A stretch of DNA of 37,632 nucleotides from Hamadaea sp. (GTDB taxonomy: Bacteria > Actinomycetota > Actinomycetes > Mycobacteriales > Micromonosporaceae). Shown here in pieces: positions 15,536 through 30,500 of this stretch; positions within the stretch are counted from its first letter, which is position 1; each line of letters opens with the position of its first letter. The stretch spans positions 1-37,632 of the forward strand of contig NZ_JABFVK010000102.1 of assembly GCF_013362815.1 (NCBI RefSeq). The letters run 5' to 3'. Made by a program: the position numbers and the translations under genes. The notes beneath the pieces are model-generated. The model searched no databases. It had not been told where the DNA came from and saw only the letters and a program-made list of their open reading frames with translations.

Positions 15536-18500
15536 GTGAGCACCAACGCCTCCGCGGTTCGACGCGCCCTGCGCAGGACGCGACGTGTACTGCTGCCCGG
15601 CCTGTCGGCCGGTGTGACTGCGACTCTCATCGCTGCTGTCCTCGTGCCGCAACAAGCGGCCGCGGCGGCGTTCGTTCCGCTGAAGCCGCAGGTCGACCGG
15701 CAGATTCAAACCGAGGATGTCCCGGCGGTCGCCAAGCGTGCCTCGGACAAGGTCGCCCGGGTGACCGCCGATCCGGCCAAGACTCCGAAGTGGCCGTCCG
15801 CGGGAACTGCCCACGTCGAGTTGCCCGCGGCCGGATCGCGCGGCAAAGACGGACGCCCCGCCGCAGCTCAGGCCGGTAGCCTGCCGATCACGCTGCGGCA
15901 TGCCGATGACGCGACGTCGGCGGCGACCGCTGCCCAGGTCGAGATCCTGGACCTGTCCGCCGTCGGGCGAACCCATCGTCCCGTGACGATGCGAATGACG
16001 GTCGACGCCCCGGCGAAGGCGGAGCGTCTGCGTATCAGCGTCGACTACTCGTCCTTCCAGTACGCAGTCGGCGGCGATTGGGCCAACCGACTGCGCCTGG
16101 TGAACCTGCCGGAATGCGCGCTGAGCACGCCGACGGCGGCCGAATGTCAGGGCACGCCGCTGTCCAGCGTGAACGACACCACCACGCGCACCGTGTCTGC
16201 CGACGTCACGCCGCAGGAGTCGACTGCCGGGGTGGCCGCCACCTCGACGATGCTCCTGGCGCTGACCGCCGGAACCGACGGCGCGAGCGGCGACTACTCG
16301 GCGACCTCCCTGACGGACTCGTCGACGTGGACGGCGGGTGGCTCCTCGGGCGCGTTCACCTGGAACTATCCGATGCGTACGCCGCCGGCCGCGGGCGGCC
16401 CGAGTCCGCAGCTCGCGCTGACCTACTCCTCGCAGAGCGTGGACGGGCGTACTGCCGCCTCGAACAACCAGCCGTCGTGGATCGGCGAAGGCTTCGACCT
16501 GTCCGCGGGTGGCTTCGTCGAGCGCAAATACAAGTCGTGCGGCGACGACATGGGCGGTACCGCGAACAACAGCACCAAGACCGGTGATCTGTGTTGGGGA
16601 ACCGACAACGCCTTCCTCAACCTGCCGGGCCACTCCGGTGAGCTGATCTACAAGTCGTCCGAGGGTCGCTGGCATCTGCGCCAAGACGACGGGACCCGGG
16701 TCGAACGCAAGACGGGCGCGGCCAACGGCGACGACAACGGCGAATACTGGGTCGTCACGACGACCGACGGAACTCAGTACTGGTTCGGCGCGCACCAGCT
16801 GCCGGGCTGGAGTTCCGGTAAGGGCGTGACCAACTCGGCCTGGACCGTGCCGGTCTTCGGCAACAACACCGACGAGCCCTGCAACGCGAGCAGCTTCGCC
16901 TCGTCGTCCTGCACGCAGGCATGGCGTTGGAACCTCGACTACGTCGTCGACACCTTCGGCAACGCGATGACCTACTGGTACGCCACCGAGGCCAACAAAT
17001 ACGGCAAGAACAACACGGCGAGCGACACGGCCGACTACGTCCGCGGCGGGTTCCTGCAGCGCATCGAGTACGGCCTGCGCTCGTCCAACCCGTTCGGCAC
17101 TCCGGCGGCGAAGGTGCTGCTCACCGACGGTGACCGTTGCCTGTCGGGATGCGCCACGTTCGACGCCACGCACTGGCCGGACACGCCGACCGACTTGGAC
17201 TGCACCGGCAGCTCCTGCTCGATCACGACGCCGAGCTTCTACACGAAACGTCGGCTGACCGGCGTCAAGACACAGGTCTGGGACTCCGCGGCGGCGGGGT
17301 TCAAGGACGTCGAGTCATGGACGTTCACCCACTCGTTCCCCGATCCGGGAGACACCACGCGAGCGGGCCTGTTCCTGTCGCGCATCTCGCACAGCGGTCT
17401 GCGAAACGGAACCGCCACCGTTCCCGACATCGTGATCACTCCCATTCAGCTGCCCAACCGGGTGGACGGCACCGACAACCGCCCGGCGATGAACTGGTCT
17501 CGCGTGCAGCAGATCCAGTCCGAGACCGGTGCGCTGACCACCGTCAGCTACACCGGTGCTGATTGCGTGGCGGGTTCCCGGATCCCGGCTTCGCCTGAGA
17601 CGAACACCTACCGATGCTTCCCCGGCTATTGGACGCCGACCGGGCAGACCAACCCGGTGCTCGACTGGTTCCACAAATACCTAGTCGACACGGTCACCGT
17701 CACCGACACCACCGGTGACACCGACACGTACGCGGCGTACACGATCAAGCGCTACCAGTACCTCGGCACGCCCGCGTGGCACTACACGGACAACGACGGG
17801 CTCACGAAAGCCAAGTACCTCACGTGGTCCGACTATCGCGGTTACGAGCGGGTCCGGACCCTGGTCGGCGAGCCCGGCGAGCAGAGCATGAGCGAGACCC
17901 GGTACTTCCGCGGCATGAACGGCGACCACCTGTCGTCGGGAACGCGCGCAGTCTCCGTCAGCGACTCGAAGGGTGGCAGTGTCGTCGACGACGACGTGTT
18001 CGCGGGCATGACCCACGAAGAGATCACCTACGCCAACACCGGCGGCACCGCTGAAGTCGACGGGACGATCAACACCCCCTGGAAGTCGTCGGCGACGGCC
18101 ACCCGGACGGTGAACGGCGTCAGCAGCTCCGCGTACCTGAGCGGGATCAGCGACACGGTCGCTCGAACCACGCTTGCCGCCGGCGGCGAGCGGACCACCC
18201 GGACTCACACCAGCTACGACGGCTACGGCATGGTCACGCAGGTCGACGACGAGGGCGACGTGGCCGTCACCGGCGACGAGACCTGCGAGAAGACGACGTT
18301 CGAACCGCGTAACACCACCGCCTGGATCGTCGACGCTCCCCAGGAGCAGCAGACGTTTGCCTTGCGCTGTGGCCAGACAAGCGACCCGGCGACCCTGACC
18401 GAGAACGACATCGTCTCCGACACCCGGACCAGCTACGACAACCACGCGTACGGCGTCGCCCCGAGCCAAGGCGCCGCCACGCTCACCGAGCGGCTGAAGT

Positions 18501-21500
18501 CCTACAACGCCGGGGTCAAAGCGTTCATCACCGACACCAAGTCGGCGTACGACGCCCAAGGGCGGGTGATCGACACCTGGGACGTCTTCGGCAACCACAG
18601 CTCCACCGCGTACACACCCACTACCGGTGGGCCTCTGACCAAGACGGTTACGACCAACGCTGCGGGGCACCCGATCACCACCGATCTGGACCCCGCGTAC
18701 GGGTCGCCGACCTCAACGACCGATGCGAATGGGAACAAGACCGACCAGGCGTACGACCCGCTCGGGCGGCTGACCGGTGTCTGGCTGCCAGGCCGGGTCA
18801 AGGGCACCGACATCGCGAACTCGGCGTTCACCTACACCGTCTCGAACACCGCACCGTCTGTCGTCGCCACGACGAAACTGACTCCGAACGGTGGCACTCT
18901 GACCACCTACTCGTTGCTCGACTCGATGCTGCGTACGCGACAGGAGCAGAAGCCGGAGGGATACACCACCGGCGGCCGAATCATCACCGACACGTTCTAC
19001 GACACCGCCGGCCGAGTCGCGAAGACCTGGGGTCCCCAGGCTGCCGACGGTGCTCCGTCGGGCACGCTCGTCGGCAACGGGCTGACCGACGCCCTCATCG
19101 ACACGATCAACATCACCAAGTACGACCCGGCCGGACGCACCATCGCGTCCATCTACTCCAAGGCCGGAACCGAGCAATGGCGTACCACGACCACGTACGA
19201 GGGCGACCGGACGAACGTGACCCCTCCGGCGGGCGGCACCGCTACCACGACGATCACCGATGCGCGGGGCAACACGGCCGCGCTGCGGCAGTACCACGGT
19301 CCGGCGCCGACCGGCGCGTACGACGAGACGGCCTACACCTACAACCGTAAGAACCAGCTCACCAAGGTCACCGACCAGGCTGGGAATCACTGGGACTTCG
19401 GTTACGACCTGCTCGGTCGCCAGACAAGCGCAACCGACCCGGACAAGGGCACGACGACCACGACCTACGACGACGGCGATCGAGTCGAGACGGTCAAGGA
19501 CGCCAACGGTGAAGTGGTCGCCTACACCTACGATGTCCTGGGCCGCAAGACCAGCCTGCGCGACGACAGTCCTACGAGCACGAGCAAGCGTGCGGAATGG
19601 ACCTACGACACCGCGACCGGCGGCAAGGGCCAGCTCGCCTCATCGTCGCGATGGGTCGGAACGAACGAGTACAAGACCACTGTCAACGGCTACAACGTCA
19701 ACAGCCAGCCCACGGGCAAGACGATCTCGATTCCGTCGTCCGAGCCCAGCGGCATCACCGGCACGTACGCCTACACGTACACCTACCGCGTAGACGGCAG
19801 CCCGGCGACGACGCGTACGCCGCTGGCCGGCGGCATCGCCGCCGAAACCCTGACGACGACGTACAACGATCAGGGCGCCGCCGCGCAGTTGCAGACGTCC
19901 ATCGGTGCCACCACCTACGTCAACGGCACCACCTACACTCGCTACGGCGAGCCGACCCTCATCAGCCGCCGCAACGGAACCGGAAAGGTCGTCCAGACCG
20001 GCCTCTACTACGAGACCGGTACGCGTCGCCTGATCGAGAGCCACTCGATCCGCGAAACGAGTCCGACCAACCTGACCGACGCGTTCTACACCTATGACGC
20101 GACCGGCAACATGACCAAGATTCGCGATGTCGCCAGCAGTGGTCCCGACGACTACCAATGCTTCAGCTACGACTACCTGCGTCGGCTCAACGATGCCTGG
20201 ACTCCGGCTGACGGCAACTGCGCCACCGCGTCGTCGGCGAGCGTCCTCGGCGGTCCGGCACCGTACTGGCTGACCTGGACGTTCGACGCCACGGGCAACC
20301 GCGCGACGCAGGTCGACCACACGGGCGCCAACGGTGCGGCGACGACGACCTACACGTACCCGACCGCAGGAGCGTCCCAGCCCCACACGCTGCTCGGCAC
20401 GTCCACCACCGACTCCGCAGGCACGAAGACCGCGGCGTACTCCTACGACCCGGCGGGCAACACCACCAAGCGCCCGGCGACCGGCGGCGGCGACCAGACA
20501 CTCACCTGGGATGCCGAAGGCCACCTCGCGACCAGTACCGACGCCGCCGGGGCAACCAGCTACGTGTACGACGCCGACGGCAACCGACTGCTGCGCAAGG
20601 ACCCGGCAGGCACGACCCTCTACCTCGACGGGCAGGAGGTCCGCCGCACCACCGCTGGAACCGTCACCGGCATCCGTTACTACAGCCACACCGGAACCCT
20701 GATCGCCCAGCGGACGAACGCGGGACTGACGTGGGTGATCACCGACCGCCAGAACAGTCAGCAGATCACCGTCAACGTCTCGACCCAGGCGTCGGTCCAG
20801 CGCCGCCAGACCCCCTACGGCACGGTCCGCGGAACCAACGCAGCCTGGGCCAACGACAAGGGATTCGTCGGCGGCACCAACGACAACACAGGTCTGACAC
20901 ATCTCGGCGCCCGCGAGTACGACCCGGCCATCGGCCGCTTCATCAGCGACGACCCGATCAGCGACCCCAACGATCCTCAGCAGATCAACGGGTACGCGTA
21001 CTCGCACAACACGCCGGTCACCGCATCGGACCCGAGCGGACTGCGTGACTGCGACTTCGCAGACTGCGACGCGTACGGCAACAACAACGACACCACCGCC
21101 GCCAGCAACTCGTATCTGAAGCCAAGCGGCGGCAAGGCAGGTGGCGGTCGCAAGACTCAGCAACAGCAAGACGAGGACGAGCAGCTCTATTACGCACGGA
21201 AGAACCATCGTGATTACCTCGCCGCGCTCCACGCCACCCAAGCGAGGCAGCAGCAGATCGCCGCGCAGAACGCGGCCGCTAAGCAAACTCACCACAGCTG
21301 GACCGACTTCTTGACGACCCCGACCTGGTCTCTGATCGCCCAGGACAAACTCGGATGGAATTGCACCTTCGGGAATGACCTGTGCTGGCTCGACGACTGG
21401 GGTCAATTCAAGGACCATGCCTTTGTCGAGGGCTCAGTCTGCGCAATTTTCTGCCTACAGGGCGTGATGAGCCACGGCCGCGTCGATCTGAATCTAACCA

Positions 21501-21742
21501 TGCTGGGGTCACCCGGCCCGGCCGGAGGCGTCGGATTCACCAGCGCAACGCCATCGGAGATGGGAACTGGAAGTTACGGGACATGTGTCACACCCGGCGT
21601 TGGGCTGTGCTACCTAGGAGGCCCGCGCTCCGAGGGCGGCGTCTACCATGGCCTTGAGGCTCAAATGGGCTGGCGACTCAGTGCCGCTTACGGCGGTGGC
21701 GGCGGCGTCTCTCTCTGGCACACGAATTGGAGTCTTTGGTGA
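15536..21742 (+). CDS. Rhs/YD-repeat polymorphic toxin-like protein
   Basis: This 2068-residue exported protein starts with GTG (TGGAG upstream) and an Arg-rich signal peptide (to about residue 40). An SpvB/TcdB-like N-terminal region (about 250-700) precedes many YD repeats (about 980-1780; for example YTYDVLGRKT and YDPAGNTTKR). The Rhs core motif follows at 1785-1838 (HLGAREYDPAIGRFISDDP, then a DPSGLRD boundary at 1832-1838). In this superfamily the YD repeats form a shell enclosing a variable C-terminal toxin. The tip here (1839-2068) has a charged/Gln-rich linker and a Cys/Gly-rich end (CAIFCLQG, GYGTCV-type repeats, YGGGGGVS, terminal WSLW). It matches no nuclease or deaminase signature I know. 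The stop overlaps the first downstream membrane-protein gene. Toxin function is inferred. Confidence 0.9.
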   Translation: MSTNASAVRRALRRTRRVLLPGLSAGVTATLIAAVLVPQQAAAAAFVPLKPQVDRQIQTEDVPAVAKRASDKVARVTADPAKTPKWPSAGTAHVELPAAGSRGKDGRPAAAQAGSLPITLRHADDATSAATAAQVEILDLSAVGRTHRPVTMRMTVDAPAKAERLRISVDYSSFQYAVGGDWANRLRLVNLPECALSTPTAAECQGTPLSSVNDTTTRTVSADVTPQESTAGVAATSTMLLALTAGTDGASGDYSATSLTDSSTWTAGGSSGAFTWNYPMRTPPAAGGPSPQLALTYSSQSVDGRTAASNNQPSWIGEGFDLSAGGFVERKYKSCGDDMGGTANNSTKTGDLCWGTDNAFLNLPGHSGELIYKSSEGRWHLRQDDGTRVERKTGAANGDDNGEYWVVTTTDGTQYWFGAHQLPGWSSGKGVTNSAWTVPVFGNNTDEPCNASSFASSSCTQAWRWNLDYVVDTFGNAMTYWYATEANKYGKNNTASDTADYVRGGFLQRIEYGLRSSNPFGTPAAKVLLTDGDRCLSGCATFDATHWPDTPTDLDCTGSSCSITTPSFYTKRRLTGVKTQVWDSAAAGFKDVESWTFTHSFPDPGDTTRAGLFLSRISHSGLRNGTATVPDIVITPIQLPNRVDGTDNRPAMNWSRVQQIQSETGALTTVSYTGADCVAGSRIPASPETNTYRCFPGYWTPTGQTNPVLDWFHKYLVDTVTVTDTTGDTDTYAAYTIKRYQYLGTPAWHYTDNDGLTKAKYLTWSDYRGYERVRTLVGEPGEQSMSETRYFRGMNGDHLSSGTRAVSVSDSKGGSVVDDDVFAGMTHEEITYANTGGTAEVDGTINTPWKSSATATRTVNGVSSSAYLSGISDTVARTTLAAGGERTTRTHTSYDGYGMVTQVDDEGDVAVTGDETCEKTTFEPRNTTAWIVDAPQEQQTFALRCGQTSDPATLTENDIVSDTRTSYDNHAYGVAPSQGAATLTERLKSYNAGVKAFITDTKSAYDAQGRVIDTWDVFGNHSSTAYTPTTGGPLTKTVTTNAAGHPITTDLDPAYGSPTSTTDANGNKTDQAYDPLGRLTGVWLPGRVKGTDIANSAFTYTVSNTAPSVVATTKLTPNGGTLTTYSLLDSMLRTRQEQKPEGYTTGGRIITDTFYDTAGRVAKTWGPQAADGAPSGTLVGNGLTDALIDTINITKYDPAGRTIASIYSKAGTEQWRTTTTYEGDRTNVTPPAGGTATTTITDARGNTAALRQYHGPAPTGAYDETAYTYNRKNQLTKVTDQAGNHWDFGYDLLGRQTSATDPDKGTTTTTYDDGDRVETVKDANGEVVAYTYDVLGRKTSLRDDSPTSTSKRAEWTYDTATGGKGQLASSSRWVGTNEYKTTVNGYNVNSQPTGKTISIPSSEPSGITGTYAYTYTYRVDGSPATTRTPLAGGIAAETLTTTYNDQGAAAQLQTSIGATTYVNGTTYTRYGEPTLISRRNGTGKVVQTGLYYETGTRRLIESHSIRETSPTNLTDAFYTYDATGNMTKIRDVASSGPDDYQCFSYDYLRRLNDAWTPADGNCATASSASVLGGPAPYWLTWTFDATGNRATQVDHTGANGAATTTYTYPTAGASQPHTLLGTSTTDSAGTKTAAYSYDPAGNTTKRPATGGGDQTLTWDAEGHLATSTDAAGATSYVYDADGNRLLRKDPAGTTLYLDGQEVRRTTAGTVTGIRYYSHTGTLIAQRTNAGLTWVITDRQNSQQITVNVSTQASVQRRQTPYGTVRGTNAAWANDKGFVGGTNDNTGLTHLGAREYDPAIGRFISDDPISDPNDPQQINGYAYSHNTPVTASDPSGLRDCDFADCDAYGNNNDTTAASNSYLKPSGGKAGGGRKTQQQQDEDEQLYYARKNHRDYLAALHATQARQQQIAAQNAAAKQTHHSWTDFLTTPTWSLIAQDKLGWNCTFGNDLCWLDDWGQFKDHAFVEGSVCAIFCLQGVMSHGRVDLNLTMLGSPGPAGGVGFTSATPSEMGTGSYGTCVTPGVGLCYLGGPRSEGGVYHGLEAQMGWRLSAAYGGGGGVSLWHTNWSLW

Positions 21743-22074
21743 TGATATCAACTGCCGTCATGTCGGCATCGACATTAGCGTCAGGTGGCGATTCGCTAGT
21801 CTCCGGCCCGGTTGGCTCTATCGTGCTTGCAGTACTAGCCGGCGGCGCGTCGATCGCCTTGGGGATATGGTTTCTGCGACTCAGAAGATCCATTGAGTCT
21901 ATGACGCCTGAGGAGCGGGCTAATCATCCCTACAACGAAGGATTCATGGGCTTTTCAGGCGTCGGTCTCAGCATGAAGAAGCCCTATATGGCAACCGTCC
22001 AGGGGATCGTCATCATTTGTTTCGGCATCATGATCTTGATCGGGATTCCATTGGCGGAGCTACTTGTCAAATAG
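21739..22074 (+). CDS. Two-helix membrane protein, candidate immunity protein (copy A)
   Basis: This protein of about 111 residues has hydrophobic segments at roughly 24-46 and 84-108, joined by a soluble loop with MTPEERANHPYNEGFMGFSGVG. The loop motif M-x-PEERxxxPxNEG recurs in the gene at 22974, a clear paralogue. The start is taken as GTG overlapping the Rhs stop (GTGA), with GGAG 6 nt upstream; ATG 21742 is the alternative. Direct overlap with an Rhs gene is the expected place for a cognate immunity gene, and small membrane proteins are typical immunity partners of membrane-active toxins. Immunity function is inferred from position only. Codon use is less GC-biased than in the Rhs repeats. 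Confidence 0.75.
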   Translation: MMISTAVMSASTLASGGDSLVSGPVGSIVLAVLAGGASIALGIWFLRLRRSIESMTPEERANHPYNEGFMGFSGVGLSMKKPYMATVQGIVIICFGIMILIGIPLAELLVK

Positions 22075-22382
22075 CGGGGGACCAACACTGACGGTAGAAG
22101 TCCGTCGTATTCGCGGCCTTAGTAGAACGACTCGCATTTCGTGGAGCCAGGTCGTCGATATACGCCCACCAGGGCCACCGGTAGCGTTGACTGTATCTGC
22201 GCCCACGATTGTCCGTCGGCGGTCCGGCAAAGGCAGACGAGATCGTTGCATTGAACGAGGTTGGCGGCTATGGCCTCTTTCATCGAACTAATCGGAAGGC
22301 AGATCGGGCGTACGACGGATTGATCGAAGGTTGGAACAAGTGGTCGTCTGATACCGCGGCTATTGGATGGCGCGGAAGGTAA
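22064..22382 (+). pseudogene. Frameshifted PH-like-domain gene (copy 1)
   Basis: The first part of the reading frame (from TTG 22064, overlapping the preceding gene) reads GGPTLTVEVRRIRG, then TRISWSQVVDIR, resembling the central strands of bacterial PH-like (bPH_6/antigen-6 type) domains. Near 22229-22231 the sequence has AAA where the second copy (23317-23502) has AA. Removing one A joins this frame to the next, ADEIVALNEVGGYGL...LIEGWNKWSSDT, which ends at TAA 22380-22382. The frame switch and the strong similarity of the tail to copy 2 show a broken gene. The family call is moderate; the frameshift relative to copy 2 is direct observation. Confidence 0.7.
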
Positions 22383-22529
22383 CGCAGACACGGTTACGGT
22401 TGCAAACTTACGTAGCGAGGAACGCATGACCGTGACCTGGATGTTGCCGACGGTAACAGTCTGAGGGAGCATGAACACATATCGGCGACTGGCTGCGAGC
22501 TCAAGATATGTGCCGAGGATGAGGTGCTA

Positions 22530-22760
22530 ATGAATCCGATACCACTCATTGCATCGGCCATCATGTTTGTCGTAGCATTCGTGTCGATTCGCAATCCAGA
22601 CGGAGTCCGGTCCTGGATGAGAAATAGGTCCATTGGGATCCTCCCTGCTGCCGTTCGGGAGTCAGCAGAGAGCATTGCTCCAGTAATTTTTGCGATCATC
22701 GGAATTTTCCTTGGATTAGGATTCTTGGCAGCCTTCGTTATGCCGTTGCTCAGTCAGTGA
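22530..22760 (+). CDS. Small two-helix membrane protein C
   Basis: This 76-residue protein has hydrophobic segments at about 3-21 and 48-72 with a basic loop between them (SWMRNRSIG). The ATG at 22530 has GAGG 5 nt upstream. The frame is also open upstream to 22413, encoding DVADGNSLREHEHISATGC and more, which may be the remnant of another gene joined to this one. It belongs to the cluster of small membrane proteins after the Rhs gene. I recognise no family. It could be an immunity protein for a lost toxin tip or an unrelated membrane peptide. Confidence 0.5.
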   Translation: MNPIPLIASAIMFVVAFVSIRNPDGVRSWMRNRSIGILPAAVRESAESIAPVIFAIIGIFLGLGFLAAFVMPLLSQ

Positions 22761-22773
22761 GAGGATTTGTCGC

Positions 22774-22977
22774 GTGATCCACCGTCAAAGCAGGTACACG
22801 GTGGCGGCGACGTTGAATTGGATAGCACTAGTGCCGTTCGTAATCGGTGGCATCGGTCTTGTCTTCTTGACAGAGGTCAACCGGGCGCTGTGCGGCGGGA
22901 TGATCCTGTCTCCCCTGATCCTGCAACTGACCGCCTTGGCGCTGCATCGACGGCGAACGGATAACCCGGAGAGATGA
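22774..22977 (+). CDS. Small two-helix membrane protein D
   Basis: This 67-residue protein starts at GTG 22774 with GAGAGGA about 7 nt upstream. It has hydrophobic segments at about 9-31 and 38-57, separated by a short charged turn (TEVNRALC). Its stop overlaps the ATG of the next gene as ATGA, so it is translationally coupled to paralogue B. It starts 14 nt after membrane protein C, suggesting one operon. The family is unknown. Coupling to an immunity candidate suggests a shared role in the toxin locus. Confidence 0.55.
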   Translation: MIHRQSRYTVAATLNWIALVPFVIGGIGLVFLTEVNRALCGGMILSPLILQLTALALHRRRTDNPER

Positions 22978-23312
22978 TTATTGGCTCATCACCGACCATT
23001 GCTCGGCTTCTCGGAGACGGGCACCCGGCCGTGTTCAGCAGCCCGCTGGCCGGCGCGATACTCGGAGTTCTCGCGTCGGCCTTCTTCATAAGCATTGGCG
23101 TCGCGTTCCTGCAGTGGGCAAAGAAGATCCGGCAGATGAGCCCGGAAGAACGGCGGAGTAATCCACGAAACGAAGGCATCCTCGGCGTCAGCGCTGTCGG
23201 GTTCAGCCTGAGACATCCATGGTTCGCTGTGGCTCAGGCCTACTTCGCCTTTGCTTTGGCTGGCTTGGTTCTGATGCTCACCGCCATATCGACCATCCAG
23301 GCAGTCGCCTGA
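22974..23312 (+). CDS. Two-helix membrane protein, candidate immunity protein (copy B)
   Basis: This 112-residue paralogue of the protein at 21739 shares the same length, the same two-helix layout (about 24-48 and 84-108) and the loop motif MSPEERRSNPRNEGILGVSAVG. The motif aligns with copy A at PEER, P-x-NEG, G-x-S-x-VG and a following P before helix 2. The start overlaps the stop of the preceding small gene, with GGAG only 4 nt before it, so translation probably depends on coupling. As in copy A, a remnant of the PH-like gene follows. Duplicated orphan immunity genes downstream of Rhs tips are common in this superfamily; the function is inferred. Confidence 0.7.
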   Translation: MIIGSSPTIARLLGDGHPAVFSSPLAGAILGVLASAFFISIGVAFLQWAKKIRQMSPEERRSNPRNEGILGVSAVGFSLRHPWFAVAQAYFAFALAGLVLMLTAISTIQAVA

Positions 23313-23316
23313 TCGG

Positions 23317-23502
23317 ATGCCAGTATGTCAATCAGGCGCACCTGGCGCTCGTGGCAAGGCAGACGAGACGGTCACATTGAACGAGGTTGGCGGATACGGC
23401 CTCCCTTGTCGAACCGACCGGAAGGCGGATCAGGCGTACCACGGATTGATTGAAGCCCGGAACAAGTGGTCGTCAGACACAGGAGCCTATGGAGGGCCCT
23501 GA
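23317..23502 (+). pseudogene. 5'-truncated PH-like-domain gene remnant (copy 2)
   Basis: The frame from ATG 23317 gives 61 residues. From GKADE onward it matches the tail of copy 1 closely (LNEVGGYGL, RKAD, AY, GLIE, NKWSSDT), at both protein and DNA level. The part that would carry the PH-like strands is missing, and the 12 preceding residues have no counterpart in copy 1. It is probably a leftover of a duplicated cassette. It could still be translated as a short protein, but no convincing ribosome binding site is seen. Confidence 0.65.
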
Positions 23503-23564
23503 TGCAGATCACGGTTACGCATGCTTCCGGAGGCTCGGGAGGCATGCGTAATCGTGATCTGCAT
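23502..23564. terminator. Long hairpin between the Rhs locus and the peptide cluster
   Basis: Two 23-nt arms (23502-23524 and 23542-23564, beginning ATGCAGATCACG) pair with one mismatch around a 17-nt loop. The element starts at the last base of the copy 2 stop and lies 38 nt from the convergent M50-like stop. It likely terminates both transcription units. Confidence 0.8.
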
Positions 23565-23601
23565 GGATGGTGCGGTCCGTCAGAGCAGATCGCGCACGTG
23601 A

Positions 23602-24780
23602 TCATGTGAGCAGGCGGAGCAGCCGGAGCCCTGTGCGTACGAGGCCGCGTAGCAGGAACGTCGTCGTCGCGGCCATCAAAACAAGAGCCGCCACGCCGGC
23701 AACTCCCGGAGCACTGAGCACCCCGGCGTCGCGTACAGCGTCGACGGCCATCGTGGCGATCCGGTACATCGAGGGCACGCCGTACGCCGCGAAGTACCAG
23801 ACCGTCCAGGTCACGCCCGGGAAGTACAGCAGTAGGTAGATCCGCGCGCAAACGAGGTCGCGGCGGCCGACGGACGACAGCAGCGCCAGGTCTTCCGGGG
23901 TTGCGCGGCGGATCGCGCGCCGGGCCAGCGCGCCCTTGGTGTCCCACAGGTTCCGGCAGCCGGTCACGGCCACGAACAAGGCATAGACGTCGGTACGCAT
24001 GTAGACCTGAAGCTGGACGACGATCCCGGTGGCCTTGAGGAACAACAGCGCTTTCAGCAGATGGGCGATCGGCGACGAGGGGTCCGACGGCCACGACAAC
24101 TGCACCACCGCGAGGACGCCGACCGTCGCAGCGTCCGACAGCATCCCCGCGAGCAGCGGCACAATTCTGTCCCGGCGAGGCAGGCCCCACAGCGTCGTCA
24201 AATCCGTCTGGTACGCGAGATTCAGCAACCGGCGGCTGATGGTCACCCGGCCGCGGACGCCTTTGGCCGCAGCCGCGAGAAGATGTGCCACCTCGTGCAC
24301 CAGACCCGACGCCAACCCCAGGAACGTCACGGCGACCAGGCTCACGAGAGGCACGGAGCTCACGATCAGATCCGTGTACGCGAGCCGCAGCGACGGCGTG
24401 ATCACCATCGCGACGACGGCAGTGATCGCGAGGGACGACTGCACGGTGAGTCCGACCTTGCCGAACAGGAGGCGGCCGGCGATCACCTGCCAGCGAGCGG
24501 GCTTGGGTTCCGAGACATCGGCAGAGGTCAGGACTCCTGCCGCGGCCAGCCCATCGAGGAAGCCTGCGACGTCCACCGGTTGACCGGCGAACTGCTCGGC
24601 TCGGGCCGTGCACTCCTCGACGTCGGTGCCCTCCTGCAGCCATCGCATGACCTGGCCGCCGATCTCCGGCACGATCACGTACTCGCCGGTGCGCGCGTTG
24701 CCGAGCACGTATCCGTCGCCGTCGCGAACGATGCTGACACCGGTGAACCGGGCCGCCTGCCGGTCGTCCAGGGTGGTCAT
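23602..24780 (-). CDS. Membrane M50-like peptidase with N-terminal PqqD/RRE-like domain
   Basis: This 392-residue protein has a soluble N-terminal region (about 1-85) with GDGYVLGNARTGEYV, then EIGGQVMRWLQEG, which resembles PqqD/RiPP recognition elements that bind precursor peptides. About six membrane segments follow. The zinc motif HEVAH (162-166) lies in the second or third helix, as in site-2-type M50 proteases, and a second motif YMRTDVYALF (260-269) resembles the distal ligand segment of peptide zinc metalloproteases. It probably cleaves, and perhaps exports, a modified peptide. The ATG overlaps the ThiF stop (ATGA), so the two are coupled. Its neighbours, a ThiF enzyme and a short peptide gene, support a maturation role. 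Confidence 0.82.
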   Translation of the reverse strand: MTTLDDRQAARFTGVSIVRDGDGYVLGNARTGEYVIVPEIGGQVMRWLQEGTDVEECTARAEQFAGQPVDVAGFLDGLAAAGVLTSADVSEPKPARWQVIAGRLLFGKVGLTVQSSLAITAVVAMVITPSLRLAYTDLIVSSVPLVSLVAVTFLGLASGLVHEVAHLLAAAAKGVRGRVTISRRLLNLAYQTDLTTLWGLPRRDRIVPLLAGMLSDAATVGVLAVVQLSWPSDPSSPIAHLLKALLFLKATGIVVQLQVYMRTDVYALFVAVTGCRNLWDTKGALARRAIRRATPEDLALLSSVGRRDLVCARIYLLLYFPGVTWTVWYFAAYGVPSMYRIATMAVDAVRDAGVLSAPGVAGVAALVLMAATTTFLLRGLVRTGLRLLRLLT

Positions 24781-25865
24781 CCGGCACCGTCGCACAGCAG
24801 GCACTTCGGATGACGAGACCAGGACGACCGGGAGGTGGTCATGCCGTCGGCCAGTTCGATCACGTTGTACGCAGCCGCGGCGACGGGCGGATCGGTATGC
24901 GTGACGTATCGCATGGCCTCCATCGCCATGAGCCCCGAGAGGATCTGCGCGACCGGACCGGTCGCCCGGTTGACGCGGGGCGGATCGATGAAGACGCCGT
25001 CCCGCAGTTCGACCGGCAGCTCGGCGGCCTCGTCCGCGCGGTTCAACTCCAGGCACTGACGGCACGGCGTACGCCCCGGCCACACCGACCAGTAAGACAA
25101 TGTCGAGTACGCGAGCCCGCCCGCGACGAACGGTATGCCCACGGCGAAGCAGACCTCGTTGATCATCAGATGCAGATCGGGTGGCGAGTCGGCGGCGCAG
25201 ACGACGACGTCACAGCCGGTCGCAAGGTCCTGAATGGACTGCACGTCGGTGACGCGGCGGTTGACCGGCGTCACGCGCGTCCCCGGCGAGTAGCCCGCCA
25301 CCCAGTCCGACGCCGCCAGCACCTTGGGCCGGCCCAACGCCGACAGCCCGTAGACGAACTGGCGGGCGAGGTTCTTGACCTCGACGATGTCGTCGTCGAC
25401 GAGGACGATCTCCCCGACACCCAACCCGGCCAGAGCCTGCAGTACGCCGCTGCCCAACCCGCCCGCGCCCACCAACAGCACCCGGGCGCGGGCCACGGCG
25501 GTGTGGATGTCGGCGCTGCTGCGCTGCAGGCTCGCGAAGAGGTCGTAGAACCGCAGGTTGCTCTGGTGGCGTCGGCGGACGTCCTCGTCGAGCCGGTCGT
25601 CGCCGTCGGCGTCCGCCAAGACCTCCAGGCCGTCGAGGTGAGCCAGCGCGGCTGAGACCTCGGCGTCGCTCACCGAGACGCCGCGCTCCGACAACGCACC
25701 GGGCAGCTCCCCGACCGTATGCCTGCCCTCGGCCAGGACCTGCAGCAAGGTCGCGACCGAACCGGTCGGGTCGTCGAGATACACACGTTCCAGCGCCCGC
25801 CGGCAGATGATCACCTGCGATCCGGCGCGTTGCACGATGATCGACTTCAATCGGGGCCGTTCCAC
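24777..25865 (-). CDS. ThiF/E1-like adenylating enzyme with N-terminal RRE-like region
   Basis: This 362-residue enzyme of the E1/ThiF/MccB superfamily activates carboxylates with ATP. The adenylation domain (about 105-335) contains the nucleotide loop GAGGLGS (133-139), the acidic cluster VDDD (155-158) and NLARQF (165-170), matching the N-L-x-R-Q motif of E1 enzymes. CRQC (268-271) and CLLC (355-358) form the structural zinc site. Residues 1-85 look like a winged-helix peptide-binding (RRE) domain, as in MccB and PaaA. The start is GTG, with AAGGA 7-8 nt upstream. It follows the 24-codon peptide gene, separated by a hairpin, so that peptide is the obvious substrate. The reaction product (amide, cyclic imide or nucleotidyl peptide) cannot be read from sequence. 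Confidence 0.88.
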   Translation of the reverse strand: MERPRLKSIIVQRAGSQVIICRRALERVYLDDPTGSVATLLQVLAEGRHTVGELPGALSERGVSVSDAEVSAALAHLDGLEVLADADGDDRLDEDVRRRHQSNLRFYDLFASLQRSSADIHTAVARARVLLVGAGGLGSGVLQALAGLGVGEIVLVDDDIVEVKNLARQFVYGLSALGRPKVLAASDWVAGYSPGTRVTPVNRRVTDVQSIQDLATGCDVVVCAADSPPDLHLMINEVCFAVGIPFVAGGLAYSTLSYWSVWPGRTPCRQCLELNRADEAAELPVELRDGVFIDPPRVNRATGPVAQILSGLMAMEAMRYVTHTDPPVAAAAYNVIELADGMTTSRSSWSRHPKCLLCDGAG

Positions 25866-25922
25866 CTGCGCGTCCTTTCGCCGAGGTCTTCCCGGTGCCT
25901 GCGTGGCTGCGGCATGGGTGCG

Positions 25923-25954
25923 GTGGGTGACCCGGCTGGCACCGGGTCACCCAC
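25923..25954 (-). terminator. Attenuator hairpin after the precursor peptide gene
   Basis: A perfect 13-bp stem (arms 25923-25935 and 25942-25954, arm GTGGGTGACCCGG) has a 6-nt loop. It starts 5 nt after the peptide stop codon and 57 nt before the ThiF start. Partial termination here would give more peptide mRNA than enzyme mRNA, as known for many RiPP clusters. Confidence 0.75.
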
Positions 25955-25959
25955 GACCG

Positions 25960-26034
25960 CTACGCGAGCTGGTCGTCGCGATAGTGGATGTAGGTCGGCT
26001 CGATGCGCTCGGCCTTCACGATGGTGATCGTCAT
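25960..26034 (-). CDS. 24-residue peptide, candidate RiPP precursor
   Basis: This short gene encodes MTITIVKAER followed by IEPTYIHYRDDQLA and ends in TAG. A strong ribosome binding site (GAGGAGG) lies 9-10 nt before the ATG, stronger than most in this window. The peptide has three Thr, two Tyr, one His, an Asp-Asp pair (20-21) and no Cys, Ser or Asn. The basic/hydrophobic first half could be the leader and the YIHYRDDQLA end the core; this split is inference. It lies between a LanC-like gene and a ThiF gene, with a hairpin on each side. It is easily missed by gene callers. Without a Cys it cannot form lanthionine, and without a C-terminal Asn it is not a microcin C7-type substrate. Confidence 0.75.
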   Translation of the reverse strand: MTITIVKAERIEPTYIHYRDDQLA

Positions 26035-26050
26035 GCGGGATGCACCTCCT

Positions 26051-26086
26051 CGGTCCGTCGAGGGGCCGATCTGTCGGCCCGGACCG
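26051..26086 (-). promoter_or_regulatory. Structured leader just upstream of the precursor ribosome binding site
   Basis: Outer arms CGGTCCG (26051-26057) and CGGACCG (26080-26086), and inner arms GGCCGA (26064-26069) and TCGGCC (26074-26079), form a bulged hairpin ending next to the AGGAGG sequence. It may stabilise the short mRNA or control access to the ribosome binding site. No promoter hexamers are convincing in the 50 nt upstream. Confidence 0.45.
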
Positions 26087-26134
26087 AGAGTCGGCGACCG
26101 GGTTCACAGCCCGATCACCGTTTGGTCACACCGG

Positions 26135-26200
26135 GCGTTGATCATGAAGGTGGGTGCGCGACACGCCGGACTGGCGGGACCATAGGTTCATGATCAACGC
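26135..26200 (-). terminator. Inverted repeat between lanC-like gene and precursor gene
   Basis: GCGTTGATCATGAA (26135-26148) is perfectly complementary to 26187-26200. The 38-nt interior contains a smaller CGCC/GGCG pairing. It begins 16 nt after the LanC-like stop, so it probably ends that transcript. Similar TTGATCATGAA/TTCATGATCAA elements recur, in my recollection, between genes of Micromonospora-type genomes. Confidence 0.65.
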
Positions 26201-26216
26201 GGAGGTCGGGTGGGGG

Positions 26217-27422
26217 TCAGACCCAGGGGACGAGGGGTGGCACGATGCGGCCCTGGTGGGCGGCGGCGAGGCGTGCGAGCCAGCTGGCGACGCCGACCGA
26301 TCCCTGCATGAATCCGGGCTCCGGCGGCAGGTCGGGCGGTGTCGCGGTGTGCTCGAAGTTCGACCAGGTCACCCCGTCCGGCGTGGTCAGCGCGCGGTCG
26401 AGCACGTCGGCGGCTAGCCGATCGCACCAGGTCAGATACTTCTCGTCGCCGGTCGCCTCGTGGCGATTCAGCAACAGCTGGCCCACGCTGGCGGTGCCGC
26501 AACAGCGGGCCACGTTGTCCCAATAACCCGGGTAGAGCCGCTCAGGAAGTCGACTATCCTCGATCGCCTGGAGACACGCGTCGATGGCGTACTGCCATTG
26601 TGGGTGCGGCGCGATCTCGTTGAGCAGCAGAAACAGCCGGATCGTGCCGGTCGGTCCGTGGCACCAGCCGAACGCCACGCGCTGCCGTTCCGGCTGCGGC
26701 GGGATCACCACCGGAACAGCCCATCCGGTCTCGTGGTCACCCAGCTTCACGATCGTCCGGGCACCGGCTACCGCCGCGTCGATCAGTTCCGGACGATCGC
26801 TCGCCCGGCCGGCCATGCCCAACGCGTACGCCACGCCGGCGGTGCCGTGGGAGAAGTTCGGTGTCAGCCGCTCCCGACCCGCGACGGCCCGCCATTGCAG
26901 TCCGTCCGCAGTGGACTCAGCCGACGCCGCCAGCCGGTCGGCCAAGACGTTCGCCGCCACCGTCACAGCCTCGTCCGCCGATTCCAGCAGGGTCAGCAGC
27001 GTGCCCGCATCGCCGAAAATGATGTCGGTGTACCGCTGCGGGTCCGGCTCGTCGTTCAGGATCCGCCCGGCGATCTGAGCCCGAACGTGAGCGGCCGCCG
27101 CGTGGCTGGCCGCATCACCGGAAACACCCGCCCACGCCTGCAAAGCCGAGGCGACGCCGGCCCAGCCGGTGAACAGTCCGTCGTTGCTCATCCGGCCGTG
27201 ATGGGCGAGATGAACGAGCCGCCCCCGGGCCGCGTCCGCGATGTCGCCGACGTCGAGCCCCGCCAGGGTCGCCTCAGCCGCAGCGAGCAGTACGCCCGCA
27301 GTGCCCTTGTAGAGGTAGTCGACCGGCTCGTTCCCCTCGCACCAGGCCTTTCCGCCGTCCGCATCGGTGGCCTGGGCCCGAATCCAATCGAATGCGCGGC
27401 GCGCGGCGTACTCCCCGTCCAT
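26217..27422 (-). CDS. LanC-like zinc protein
   Basis: This 401-residue soluble protein has the alpha/alpha-toroid of lanthionine cyclases. Repeated G-x-x-G segments are visible (YKGTAGVLLA, FTGWAGVASAL, FSHGTAGVAYAL, FMQGSVGVASWL). The zinc-site motifs are GWCHGPTG (Cys254) and RCCGTAS (Cys307, Cys308). The usual C-H-G motif is C-C-G here, a three-cysteine site like that of ProcM-type enzymes. LanC proteins add Cys thiols to dehydroamino acids, while LanC-like proteins can use other thiols. No dehydratase is encoded nearby and the adjacent peptide has no Cys, so the reaction is open. The ATG at 27422 is the best start available but has only a weak GGGG upstream. It is separated from the precursor gene by an inverted repeat. 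Confidence 0.85.
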   Translation of the reverse strand: MDGEYAARRAFDWIRAQATDADGGKAWCEGNEPVDYLYKGTAGVLLAAAEATLAGLDVGDIADAARGRLVHLAHHGRMSNDGLFTGWAGVASALQAWAGVSGDAASHAAAAHVRAQIAGRILNDEPDPQRYTDIIFGDAGTLLTLLESADEAVTVAANVLADRLAASAESTADGLQWRAVAGRERLTPNFSHGTAGVAYALGMAGRASDRPELIDAAVAGARTIVKLGDHETGWAVPVVIPPQPERQRVAFGWCHGPTGTIRLFLLLNEIAPHPQWQYAIDACLQAIEDSRLPERLYPGYWDNVARCCGTASVGQLLLNRHEATGDEKYLTWCDRLAADVLDRALTTPDGVTWSNFEHTATPPDLPPEPGFMQGSVGVASWLARLAAAHQGRIVPPLVPWV

Positions 27423-27440
27423 GACCCCAGAACGTACGCC

Positions 27441-27500
27441 ATCCACAGCCCGATCCGTGTCAAAGTCGGGAGGCGAAATGACACGGATCGGGCTGTGGAT
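27441..27500 (-). terminator. Perfect 22-bp hairpin terminating the arabinofuranosidase operon
   Basis: Arms 27441-27462 and 27479-27500 are exact complements around a 16-nt loop. The hairpin starts 12 nt after the stop of the large GH51 gene. It lies 18 nt from the LanC-like start, and the sequence TTGACA on the minus strand spans its loop edge, so it may overlap the next promoter. Confidence 0.85.
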
Positions 27501-27512
27501 CACGCAGCCGTA

Positions 27513-30500
27513 TTACAACCGGATCGGGAGGGGCGACGCACCGACGGACGACGCTTCCACCGCTGTGCGTACCTTCGTGGTGAAACCGGCCTTGGACACC
27601 GTGAGCGTGTAGGTGCCCACGGGCGCTGTGATGCGGTAGTAGCCCGCGGCGTTGGTCGTCGCGGTGAGCCCGCCGCCTGCGTCGACCGTGGCTCCGGCGA
27701 TCGGCGTGCCGGTGGTGGTCGTGACCCGGCCGATGATCGACGGGCCGGTGATGGCCGCGGCACCGGTGGTGACGGTGATGACGGTGTAGGAATGGGCCGG
27801 GAAGGTGTAGTCGAAAGTGGACCCGACACCGGTGATGGTGCTGGTGGCGGTCTGGATTTGAGTCGGCGACTGCCAGGTGTTCTGATCGAGGTAGCCGGCC
27901 GAGTCGACGGTGGCGACGCTCGCGGTGGAGGCGATCGTGCCTGCGCCGGTGAGGTTGACGGTCGAGGTCTGCGCAGCCGAGGGATCGCGGTTGATCACCG
28001 AGAGGTAGAGCTTGGTGCCGTCGGCCGAGCGGGTCGTGGTGATGTCGAGCATCGGTACGCCGCTGCGAGCGGGCAGGTTGCCGAGCGCCGGCGTGTTGTA
28101 GGTCGGGCCGGTGAGGGTGGTGCTGAGCAGCAGCGGCCCGTGTTGCGTGGCGGCGAGTTGCTGCGCGAGGTAGCCCGGCGTGACGAAGGTGCCGCGGTTG
28201 GCCAGCCGGATCGCGGAGCCGTCCCAGAAGTTGACGAGAGCGGATGCGCCGTTGAGTTCGTTGGCGTCCGAGCGGCGCATGAAGAGGTTCAGCAGCCCGG
28301 CTTCTTGGAGCGCGCCTTCGAGCGTACGGGTTCGGCGGTGCTCTTCATTGAAATACATCGCGTTGTGTTCGGTGACGGCGAGTTTGATGTCCCGTCCGCC
28401 GCCGCTGGCCAGCAGGGTGTCGGTCGCGGTGGCCATGCGGTCGCCGATGACCGCCGGCGCGCCGACCGACGCCTGGTAGACGGTGAGGTTGTCGTAGTTC
28501 GCCGGCAACGGTTGCGGGCTGTAGTAATGCACCGACAGGTGGTCCGTCCGGCTGCCTGAGGTGCCGAGCACTGTCGTGTTCCAGGTCTGATCGTTGTTGG
28601 TTCCGTCGCCGCCTTCGGCGATGAACGCGATCGTGGAATCCTTGGCCGCCATGGCATCGCGGTAGGTGTTGTAACTGGCCGCGTAGTTCGCTGCGGTCGT
28701 CCAGCCCGGCGTCCAGGAACCCCACACCTCGTTGCCGATCTCCCAGGTGCGTACGTTCCACGGGGTGCTGCGGCCGTTGGCGGCCCGCTGCGCACCATAG
28801 GTCGTTGCCGTGCTGCCATTGGCGTACTCGACCCAGTTGGCCGCCAGCGTTGGAGTGCCACGGCCCCAGTTCACGTTGAGATACACCGGGATGCCGAGCG
28901 CCTCACCCAACGCCAGGATCTCGTCCGTGCCGACATCGTTCGTCAGCCACAGCGCATCCCATTGGTTGTAATGCATCGGCGGACGGCTGTCCCGAGGACC
29001 GATGCCGTCGGTGAAGGTGTAGCTGTCGGCGATGATGCCGCCGGGCCAGCGGATCGCGCCGGGCTTCAACGCGGTCAAGGCGTCGACGAAGTCCTTGCGC
29101 CAGCCGCCGAGCGTCACCTCCGCCGCGTTCAGCGGCATGACACTCACCATGTCTATCCACAATGTACCTGTCCCGGCCGTGCCGAGGAACAGCTTGGCGT
29201 ACGGGTCGGTGGTCGTGGGGGTCACGGTCGCGGTGAACTTCGTCCACGCGCCGGTCACTGAAGAAAACGTCGTGGTCGCGTACGCGGGATAACTCGCGCT
29301 GTCCCCCACATCCGGTCCCAGGGTCACGGTCACCGGGCTGCTCAAGGCCGTCTGCTTCAGATAGGCACTGATCTGATACGCACGACCGCCGGTCACGGCG
29401 ATGGCGCCCTGGCTGATGCCCTTGCGGCCGGTGGTGTGCTGCGTGACGTCGATACGCTGGGCGTACGTGCCGTTGAAGCCGGCTCGGTCCTGGCTGTAGA
29501 CGGCCTGATCGGCGTACCCGTCTTCGGCCCAGCCGTCGGTACGCCACCAGGTGAGGTAGTCCCACTTGGTGACCGAGGTGCCCCAGCCGTAGAGGAAGGC
29601 CGAGTAGTCCCCGTTCGGCACCGCTGTCGTCGTGATGCTGTACGCGAGCCGCCCGTTGGCGAAGAAGTTCACCGTACGCGAGCCGCCGGTCCACTTGCCG
29701 ACCTCGACTCGCAGGACGACCGGGAGGCTGACGGCCGGACCGGTCCACGGAGTGACTCCGTCGCCGAAGACCCGCAGGGTGCCCGCTTCCACGCCGAACT
29801 CGATGTACTTGGTGAAGTCGCCGCGGCCGCTGCCGCCGTAGATGTTGAGCAACCCGTTGGTGCCGGTCATCGAGTCCAGCTTGGCCTCGACCGTGTAGTC
29901 GTAGACGTCGCCTTCGGAGACCGGCTGCGACATGATCCCGTATCGGCTGTTGGCCGCGCCGTTGATCACCATCTGGCTGTTGGACATGCTCGACGTGCCC
30001 CAGCCGCCGGCCAGCGTGGAGTTCGTCCACGCGCCGCTGATCCCGGGTCCACCCTCGAAGTGGTTGTCCCAGCGGTCGTTCATGTGCACTTGGCGTACGC
30101 CGATCGAGTCCCAGGTGGTCGTCGAGGTGCCCCAGCCGTAGAGGAACAGCCGGAAGTCGGGCGCGGGCACGTCGAAGCGCGTCCACAGCTCGTGGACCCG
30201 AGTGCCGTTCACGAAGAAGCGGAACAGCCGCCCGTTCGACCAGTACGGGCTGACCTGGACGGACAAGGTGGCGGGCAGGCTGACGGCCGAGCCGGTGAAG
30301 TTGCCGGTGCCGTCGCTGGTGAAGACCTTGGCGACACCGCCGTCGATCCCGAACTCCATGAACTTCGTGAAGTCGTTCGCCCCGGCACCGCCGTAGATGT
30401 TGAGCAGGCCGTTGGTGCCGGCGATGCCGGTGAGCCGGGCGTCGATCGTGGTCCAGTCGGTCGAGCTGTTGCGGATGTAGTCCGACAGCACGCCGTACCG

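What the first reader, a model, noticed from the sequence alone, without database searches (positions are those of the whole stretch)
23602..27422. Candidate undescribed RiPP-type cluster: 24-residue peptide, ThiF enzyme, M50-like protease, LanC-like protein
A very short peptide gene with one of the best ribosome binding sites in the window sits directly upstream of a MccB/PaaA-like adenylating enzyme. A membrane M50-like protease with a PqqD/RRE-like N-terminus follows (ATGA overlap), and a LanC-like zinc protein lies on the other side. Both maturation enzymes seem to carry peptide-recognition regions. I know of no described RiPP class combining these three enzymes with a Cys-free, Ser-free precursor. 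Product class and bioactivity are unknown.
Basis: partly seen in the sequence, partly recalled or inferred. Interest (0 to 1): 0.88.

Follow-up and report, generated by a model that had tools for sequence, protein, structure and literature searches.

The report
Three-gene ThiF/M50 modified-peptide cluster in actinobacteria
A tiny peptide gene sits beside an enzyme that probably activates the peptide's tail end and a membrane protease that probably cuts it free; the same trio recurs in many actinobacteria with a fixed front half and changing tail, so it looks like an undescribed family of small modified peptides, while the neighbouring LanC-like gene is probably not part of it.

Summary
The 24-residue peptide (25960-26034, minus), ThiF enzyme (24777-25865) and M50-like protease (23602-24780, ATGA overlap) are real and recur as a unit: M50 lies within 600 bp of ThiF in 43 of 45 large loci. 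A precursor with the same 14-residue leader (roughly MKIxVxKVExIxAT) is found in 58 of 67 ThiF loci by profile; 5 more carry a longer variant, 1 a frameshifted copy. The profile gave no hit away from ThiF in 45 loci and none in shuffled DNA. After Thr14, constant in 41 of 41 distinct precursors, the tail is hypervariable (4-19 residues). ThiF keeps MccB-type ATP residues. No core ends in Asn and 11 of 41 lack Asp/Glu, so neither microcin C nor pantocin chemistry fits the whole family; the carboxylate all share is the C-terminus. Best reading: ThiF adenylates the C-terminus, an internal nucleophile or an amine captures it, and M50 frees the product. LanC is not found beside ThiF in relatives. 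A SARP/TPR regulator lies near in 27 of 45 loci, none in the window's clade. My searches found no description in print. New variant of a known kind; chemistry untested.

The parts
25960..26034 (-). precursor peptide gene, MTITIVKAERIEPT (leader, 25993-26034) + YIHYRDDQLA (core, 25963-25992) + stop; the leader/core border after Thr14 is inferred
   Evidence: leader found in 58 of 67 loci
26043..26050 (-). ribosome-binding site AGGAGGTG of the precursor
   Evidence: sequence, upstream string printed
25923..25954 (.). hairpin right after the precursor stop (13-bp perfect arms, 6-nt loop), before ThiF
   Evidence: 75 nt after stop, MFE -45.6, z -5.1
24777..25865 (-). ThiF adenylating enzyme (GTG start), 362 aa, with a probable N-terminal RRE domain
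   Evidence: Pfam ThiF 1.4e-44; MccB and PaaA in PDB profile search; invariant R168, K181, D226 in 19 of 19; model pLDDT 86.5 with an N-terminal three-strand/three-helix region
23602..24780 (-). M50-like membrane protease with PqqD/RRE-like N-terminus; HEVAH and R-T-D-x-Y
   Evidence: membrane topology not computed
23502..23564 (.). inverted repeat (31-nt arms, 90% complementary, 1-nt spacer) after M50: possible end of the unit, no T-run
   Evidence: sequence
26135..26200 (.). 14-nt perfect inverted repeat between LanC-like gene and precursor: possible boundary of the unit
26217..27422 (-). LanC-like gene: adjacent, judged NOT part of the cluster

Best explanation
The peptide, ThiF and M50 genes are a self-contained RiPP pathway. 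[quoted passage not shown] The activated end is then captured, most likely inside the same peptide (loss of water, macrocycle or imide) or by a small amine. The M50-like membrane protease, which carries its own PqqD/RRE-like domain, cuts at or near the constant Thr14 and releases the product, perhaps also carrying it out, since I saw no conserved exporter. Shown: gene conservation and linkage, leader/core anatomy, ATP-site residues, HExxH. Inferred: RRE binding, C-terminal adenylation, capture, cleavage site, export. LanC is a bystander.
For: Linkage: M50 within 600 bp of the ThiF end in 43 of 45 large loci; an M50 hit in 65 of the 67 small loci (all but L024 and L136). Leader: 58 of 67 loci by profile, plus L028-L031 and L137 with a longer leader ending ...KIETT and L006/L035 frameshifted. 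The precursor may lie before ThiF, between ThiF and M50, or after M50 and still keeps the leader. Residue 14 is Thr in 41 of 41 distinct ORFs picked on residues 2-9 only, beside variable residues 10-13 and a hypervariable core. C-terminal residue is S, A, T, V, C or G in 39 of 41. 11 of 41 cores have no D/E, 13 of 41 no C/S/T: the alpha-carboxylate is the only activatable carboxylate all share. R168/K181/D226 invariant in 19 of 19, at the spacing of EnfB R167/K180/D225 (PMC12250964, section 5). ThiF profile hits MccB (1e-38 to 2e-38) and PaaA (5e-28, aligned from position 14). HExxH in 25 of 25 M50s printed. M50 N-terminus: lasso PqqD chaperone in 2 of 20 (best 0.0004) and 2 of 20 hit the daptide protease model (best 3.9e-06). 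Hairpin after the precursor stop, z <= -2 in 27 of 41.
Against: No product, transcript or mass is known. No gene family other than ThiF, M50 and the SARP (and ORFs antisense to M50) occurs in more than 5 of 45 loci, so no exporter is conserved; not all neighbours were annotated. With the window's ThiF alone as query the best solved relatives are MoeB (6e-21) and E. coli ThiF (3e-17), with MccB (7e-17) and PaaA (7e-11) behind and MccB aligned from residue 118 only. The RRE assignment rests on a predicted model and profile overlap, as fold comparison was switched off. PqqD and daptide hits are weak and, where shown, under cut-off. dN 0.125 / dS 0.179 for the window/G133 peptide pair (2 synonymous, 5 nonsynonymous codons of 24) does not by itself show purifying selection. 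Chemistry need not be the same in all clades. L180 and L182 have no M50 hit (E<=1e-10) near ThiF, L024 and L136 none at 1e-3.
Confidence: 0.66

Rival explanations
1. Microcin C-like peptide-nucleotide: ThiF makes an N-P bond between the C-terminus and a nucleotide.
For: MccB is the best solved relative of the 19-row profile, though not of the window's sequence alone.
Against: MccB specifically modifies a C-terminal Asn (PMC12250964, section 2); 0 of 41 distinct precursors end in Asn. No gene family beyond ThiF, M50 and SARP in more than 5 of 45 loci, antisense ORFs aside.
Confidence: 0.08
2. Pantocin/GRC-like: ThiF activates an Asp/Glu side chain that is then captured in the core.
For: PaaA is among the PDB hits; 30 of 41 cores have D/E and 17 of 41 have D next to last; the window core has two Asp.
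Against: 11 of 41 cores have no D/E, among them QFMT, QNPAT, GLQV. It could hold in some clades only, the window's included.
Confidence: 0.15
3. Three-enzyme cluster including LanC.
For: Adjacent and on the same strand in the window.
Against: No LanC hit at E<=1e-3 in the 20 large relative loci (four weaker hits at 0.007-0.6) and only in the window's own copies among 69 loci. 18 of 120 other genomes have a LanC match (E<=1e-20), none of the three other same-genus genomes; 19 of the 21 other LanC places were checked with 1.5-kb flanks and show no ThiF/M50 hit. G005 has both, far apart (2.6 and 6.3 Mb). No Cys in the window's peptide; inverted repeat between the genes.
Confidence: 0.03
4. A peptide-signal system: the modified peptide is read by the TPR part of the adjacent SARP regulator.
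For: A BTAD/NB-ARC/TPR gene within 5 kb of ThiF in 27 of 45 loci (domains of three of them). In 12 genomes with 12-56 or more BTAD genes each (367 in about 110.6 Mb, about 0.03 per 10 kb) 11 loci have one within 5 kb, expected about 0.4.
Against: None in the window or in the other loci of its clade (L035 and L166 are short contigs). SARPs also simply switch on clusters. The 12 genomes were chosen after seeing their loci.
Confidence: 0.12
5. Ordinary sulfur-carrier/thiamin or Ubl-type ThiF, or a defence E1.
For: ThiF fold; MoeB and ThiF are the top PDB hits of the single sequence.
Against: NCBIfam thiamin ThiF score far under cut-off (106.6 against 275.25); in the tree the 66 loci split from 19 generic ThiF rows (100/98, with a long-branch warning); the conserved neighbours are precursor and M50.
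Confidence: 0.02

Closest known systems
RRE-ThiF cyclases EnfB (enterofaecin) and IndF (indolylamide)
   Same: leader + short core, N-terminal RRE, ThiF domain, ATP-dependent activation of the C-terminal carboxylate, compact cluster (PMC12250964 section 5; PMC12150305 main text)
   Different: Enterococcal/streptococcal precursors with WWIVI or NWYFI ends; Ind uses an M16 protease and a transporter. Here: KVExIxAT-type leader, no fixed core, M50-like protease, no conserved transporter seen
Microcin C (MccB)
   Same: best solved relative of the ThiF profile
   Different: no C-terminal Asn in 41 of 41 precursors; no conserved further enzyme genes
Daptide protease MpaP
   Same: RRE domain fused to an intramembrane protease, also in Actinomycetota (PMC10036551, passages); NCBIfam daptide protease model hits 2 of 20 relatives
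   Different: no family like the daptide modifying enzymes conserved beside it (not tested by profile); C-terminal Thr in only 6 of 41
Pearlin proteases TglG/TmoG and epipeptide EpeP
   Same: membrane M50 proteases that finish RiPPs; EpeP thought to cut and export (PMC10885120, passages)
   Different: work with other modifying enzymes

Membership tests
RRE-ThiF RiPP (broad kind) | ThiF domain with N-terminal leader-binding RRE | tested here: inconclusive
   PaaA aligned from profile position 14; model shows three strands and three helices before the ThiF domain; no fold comparison possible
RRE-ThiF RiPP (broad kind) | conserved precursor gene beside the enzyme | tested here: met
   58 of 67 loci by profile, 5 more
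RRE-ThiF RiPP (broad kind) | ATP-dependent modification of the precursor | not testable with these tools
   ATP-site residues conserved in 19 of 19
Microcin C | precursor ends in Asn | tested here: not met
   0 of 41
Pantocin A | core Glu-Glu pair cyclised by PaaA | tested here: not met
   window core YIHYRDDQLA has no Glu; 11 of 41 cores lack D/E
Enterofaecin / Ind | Trp-containing core (WWIVI, NWYFI) | tested here: not met
   window core has no Trp; 2 of 41 precursors have Trp in the core
Daptide | C-terminal Thr | tested here: not met
   window ends in Ala; T is C-terminal in 6 of 41
Daptide | oxidative decarboxylation, aminotransferase and methyltransferase genes | tested here: inconclusive
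   no such conserved family by clustering; no profile search for them was made
Lanthipeptide | Cys and Ser/Thr in core | tested here: not met
   the window's peptide has no Cys and its core no Ser/Thr
Lanthipeptide | dehydratase gene | not tested
   no profile search for a dehydratase was made; none noticed beside LanC
Thiamin ThiF | NCBIfam equivalog score | tested here: not met
   106.6 bits against cut-off 275.25
M50 site-2 protease | HExxH and a second conserved Asp motif | tested here: met
   HExxH in 25 of 25; R262/D264/Y266 invariant in 20 of 20. That this Asp is the M50 zinc ligand is recalled, not tested
M50 site-2 protease | match to the Pfam Peptidase_M50 model | tested here: inconclusive
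   window: no such hit at E<=1; 5 of 20 relatives at E<=0.1, best 0.0054

The most novel reading that the evidence does not exclude
An actinobacterial peptide-hormone system: ThiF closes a ring between the C-terminus and the hydroxyl of the constant Thr14 (a 5-residue macrolactone in the T-QFMT type, the ring size I recall for staphylococcal autoinducing peptides, which other enzymes make), the M50-like protease trims and releases it, and in many relatives the neighbouring BTAD/NB-ARC/TPR regulator senses it.
Probability: 0.1. Interest if true: 0.88.

Novelty: new variant of a known kind. Interest (0 to 1): 0.62.

Why it matters
It defines a compact, repeatedly found peptide pathway with one likely modifying enzyme, one protease and a fixed leader that tolerates very different tails. 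If confirmed it adds to the short list of ThiF chemistries in RiPPs (phosphoramidate, pantocin bicycle, thiolactone, a reported imide whose structure PMC12150305 says needs more NMR, indolylamide), gives a simple engineering scaffold, and, through the linked SARP regulators of many relatives, makes it testable whether actinobacteria use modified short peptides as signals.

Tried and rejected
LanC as a partner: rejected. Generic ThiF/cofactor role: rejected, although MoeB and ThiF lead the single-sequence PDB search. Rfam match in 22500-28500 at gathering score: none. PDB profile search with M50: weak unrelated hits, best E 0.23. The 19 Streptomyces plasmid records were not examined for precursor or M50. 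Family F3 lies on the opposite strand over the M50 position and was taken as antisense ORFs; families F4 and F5 (5 and 4 loci, the window among them) were not annotated. Tree labels were set by hand; rows labelled 'none' L028-L031 and L137 do have precursors, the tree was not rebuilt, and L013 was left out as short. Loci still without this leader: L013 (ThiF cut short), L024 and L136 (other short ORFs upstream, MIKKSTKRYS... and MSFTVNRV...). In the 45-locus set the five without a profile hit are L035 (frameshift), L042 (= L013), L180 (two degenerate candidates, not counted), L182 (other leader) and L183 (longer leader).

My own errors: the M50 and the peptide were given one base out of frame, so their 'no family' and BLAST results there are void; they were redone in frame. 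The other proteins were in frame.

Limits of counts: the leader profile was built from 33 leaders of these same loci, so 58 of 67 measures presence, and the control is the lack of hits elsewhere and in shuffled DNA. Gene calling in scripts was a simple GC3 method. The 45 large and the 67 small loci overlap heavily (same genomes). '41 precursors' are distinct sequences; a few share a core.
Full report
Observation. The four genes described are present on the minus strand with the stated order and signals. The peptide is MTITIVKAERIEPTYIHYRDDQLA with AGGAGGTG 8 nt before its ATG. ThiF starts with GTG at 25865; its stop overlaps the M50 start as ATGA. Pfam gives ThiF 1.4e-44 and LANC_like 6.8e-28. 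The window's M50 hits only PqqD-type models weakly. The thiamin ThiF model of NCBIfam scores far under its cut-off.

Conservation. Of 354 genomes of the window's family 32, its own included, have a ThiF match at E<=1e-30. With a 19-row ThiF profile at E<=1e-60: 5 of 394 genomes drawn from the class and 1 of 396 from the phylum (both counts include the window's own), and 41 of 297 in a second family (f19) whose members join named Nonomuraea in the tree. A genome-contig scan gave three Nonomuraea and one Streptomyces member, each with M50 and precursor. 19 Streptomyces plasmid records hold ThiF at 36-37% identity, not looked at further.

The unit. In 45 large loci M50 begins within 600 bp of the ThiF end in 43. 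A 14-residue leader profile hits 40 of 45 loci, always on the ThiF strand, from -307 to +2386 of the ThiF start, with nothing elsewhere in those loci at score 12 and nothing in about 810 kb of locally shuffled sequence. In the set of 67 smaller loci 58 have a hit. Of the nine without, four (L028-L031) have a precursor with a longer front, ending ...IEIRKLDKIETT|ALNSNPSG or ...ALSSNPSG, and L137 ends ...KLEKIETT|INRGGQSG; L006 is the same locus as L035, where a homologous precursor is frameshifted. Left over are L013, L024 and L136.

Anatomy. The 41 distinct precursors share E9 and T14 without exception; positions 10-13 vary, and the stretch after T14 is 4 to 19 residues with no common residue. 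Choosing ORFs on residues 2-9 only still gives T at 14 in 41 of 41. The last residue is S 14, A 10, T 6, V 4, C 3, G 2, H 1, L 1. 30 of 41 cores hold D/E, 28 of 41 hold C/S/T, and two (GLQV, VNGPH) hold none of D, E, K, C, S, T. 11 of 41 have His three residues after T14, the window and its clade among them. In the L-T class (mostly R-L-T) the precursor sits between ThiF and M50; the ThiFs of this class form one clade (14 rows, 100/100). A hairpin follows the precursor stop in many loci: z <= -2 in 27 of 41, the window's at -5.1.

Enzymes. The ThiF profile's best solved relatives are MccB (1e-38 to 2e-38), then MoeB (4e-37) and E1 enzymes, with PaaA at 5e-28. The window's sequence alone ranks MoeB (6e-21) and E. 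coli ThiF (3e-17) before MccB (7e-17). R168, K181 and D226 are invariant in 19 of 19; PMC12250964 gives R167, K180 and D225 as ATP and Mg residues of EnfB. The predicted model (24 rows, pLDDT 86.5, pTM 0.67) has an N-terminal three-strand, three-helix region before the ThiF domain. The M50 proteins have HExxH in 25 of 25 and an invariant R-x-D-x-Y in 20 of 20; PqqD is hit by 3 of 20 (0.002 at best), the lasso PqqD chaperone by 2 of 20 and the daptide protease model by 2 of 20.

Mechanism. ThiF-like RiPP enzymes adenylate a carboxylate which a nucleophile then takes (PMC12250964, read: sections 1-3, 4.1, the start of 4.2, 5 and 6; PMC12150305, main text read). Because no side chain is shared by all cores, I place the activation at the C-terminus; this assumes one chemistry for the family. 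What captures it is open: backbone amide, a side chain, Thr14, or an amine. The M50 step is by analogy with MpaP (PMC10036551, passages), TglG/TmoG and EpeP (PMC10885120, passages).

LanC. No hit at E<=1e-3 in the 20 large relative loci (weaker hits in four loci at 0.007-0.6), and among 69 small loci only in the two copies of the window. Of 121 genomes 19 including the window's own have a LanC match at E<=1e-20; none of the three other same-genus genomes does. None of the 19 other LanC loci checked, of 21 other matches, shows ThiF or M50 in 1.5-kb flanks. The two nearest homologues follow genes of homogentisate and fumarylacetoacetate type (Pfam on one of the two loci).

Regulator. A BTAD/NB-ARC/TPR protein (three scanned) lies within 5 kb of ThiF in 27 of 45 loci, in none of the window's clade. 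In 12 genomes with 12 to 56 BTAD genes each (367 in about 110.6 Mb by the listed sizes, lower bounds) 11 loci have one within 5 kb, against about 0.4 expected.

Print. Ten searches of 5.39 million open papers found no description of this combination or of the leader strings. Seen besides: passages of PMC7136475 and PMC7470986, abstract and passages of PMC13053918. PMC12150305 reports 27,400 RRE-ThiF candidates and further clusters in its Figure S1, which I could not see; this family may be one of them. Most subscription papers are not covered.

Verdict. A real, conserved, apparently undescribed RiPP family of the ThiF kind, without LanC. Structure, activity and export of the product are unknown.

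Noticed in passing
L206:6003-10911 (-), L207:3355-8265 (+): LanC-like proteins 55-57% identical to the window's lie in a same-strand run after an HPPD-like (glyoxalase-superfamily), a homogentisate dioxygenase and a fumarylacetoacetase gene (Pfam on L206 only), where by recall a maleylacetoacetate isomerase might be expected; a stand-alone LanC may be a catabolic thiol enzyme. The window's genome, G133 and G135 have the homogentisate dioxygenase elsewhere, but G133 and G135 lack this LanC at E<=1e-20.
   Followed up: partly
window 23502-23564, 26135-26200, 27441-27500: Three long inverted repeats lie after the M50 gene and on both sides of the LanC-like gene, perhaps marking separate transcription units.
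   Followed up: partly
window 15536-21742 (+) and 21727-23312 (+): A 2068-aa protein that looks RHS-like by eye (not scanned), followed by small ORFs; three of these were scanned and hit no family above cut-off.
   Followed up: no
L182 around ThiF; L024 upstream of ThiF: More distant ThiFs with another short ORF type, MIKKSTKRYS..., in L182 both before and after ThiF: possibly a sister precursor family.
   Followed up: no
L043, +1163 and +1300 from the ThiF start: One locus encodes two different precursors in tandem between ThiF and M50.
   Followed up: no
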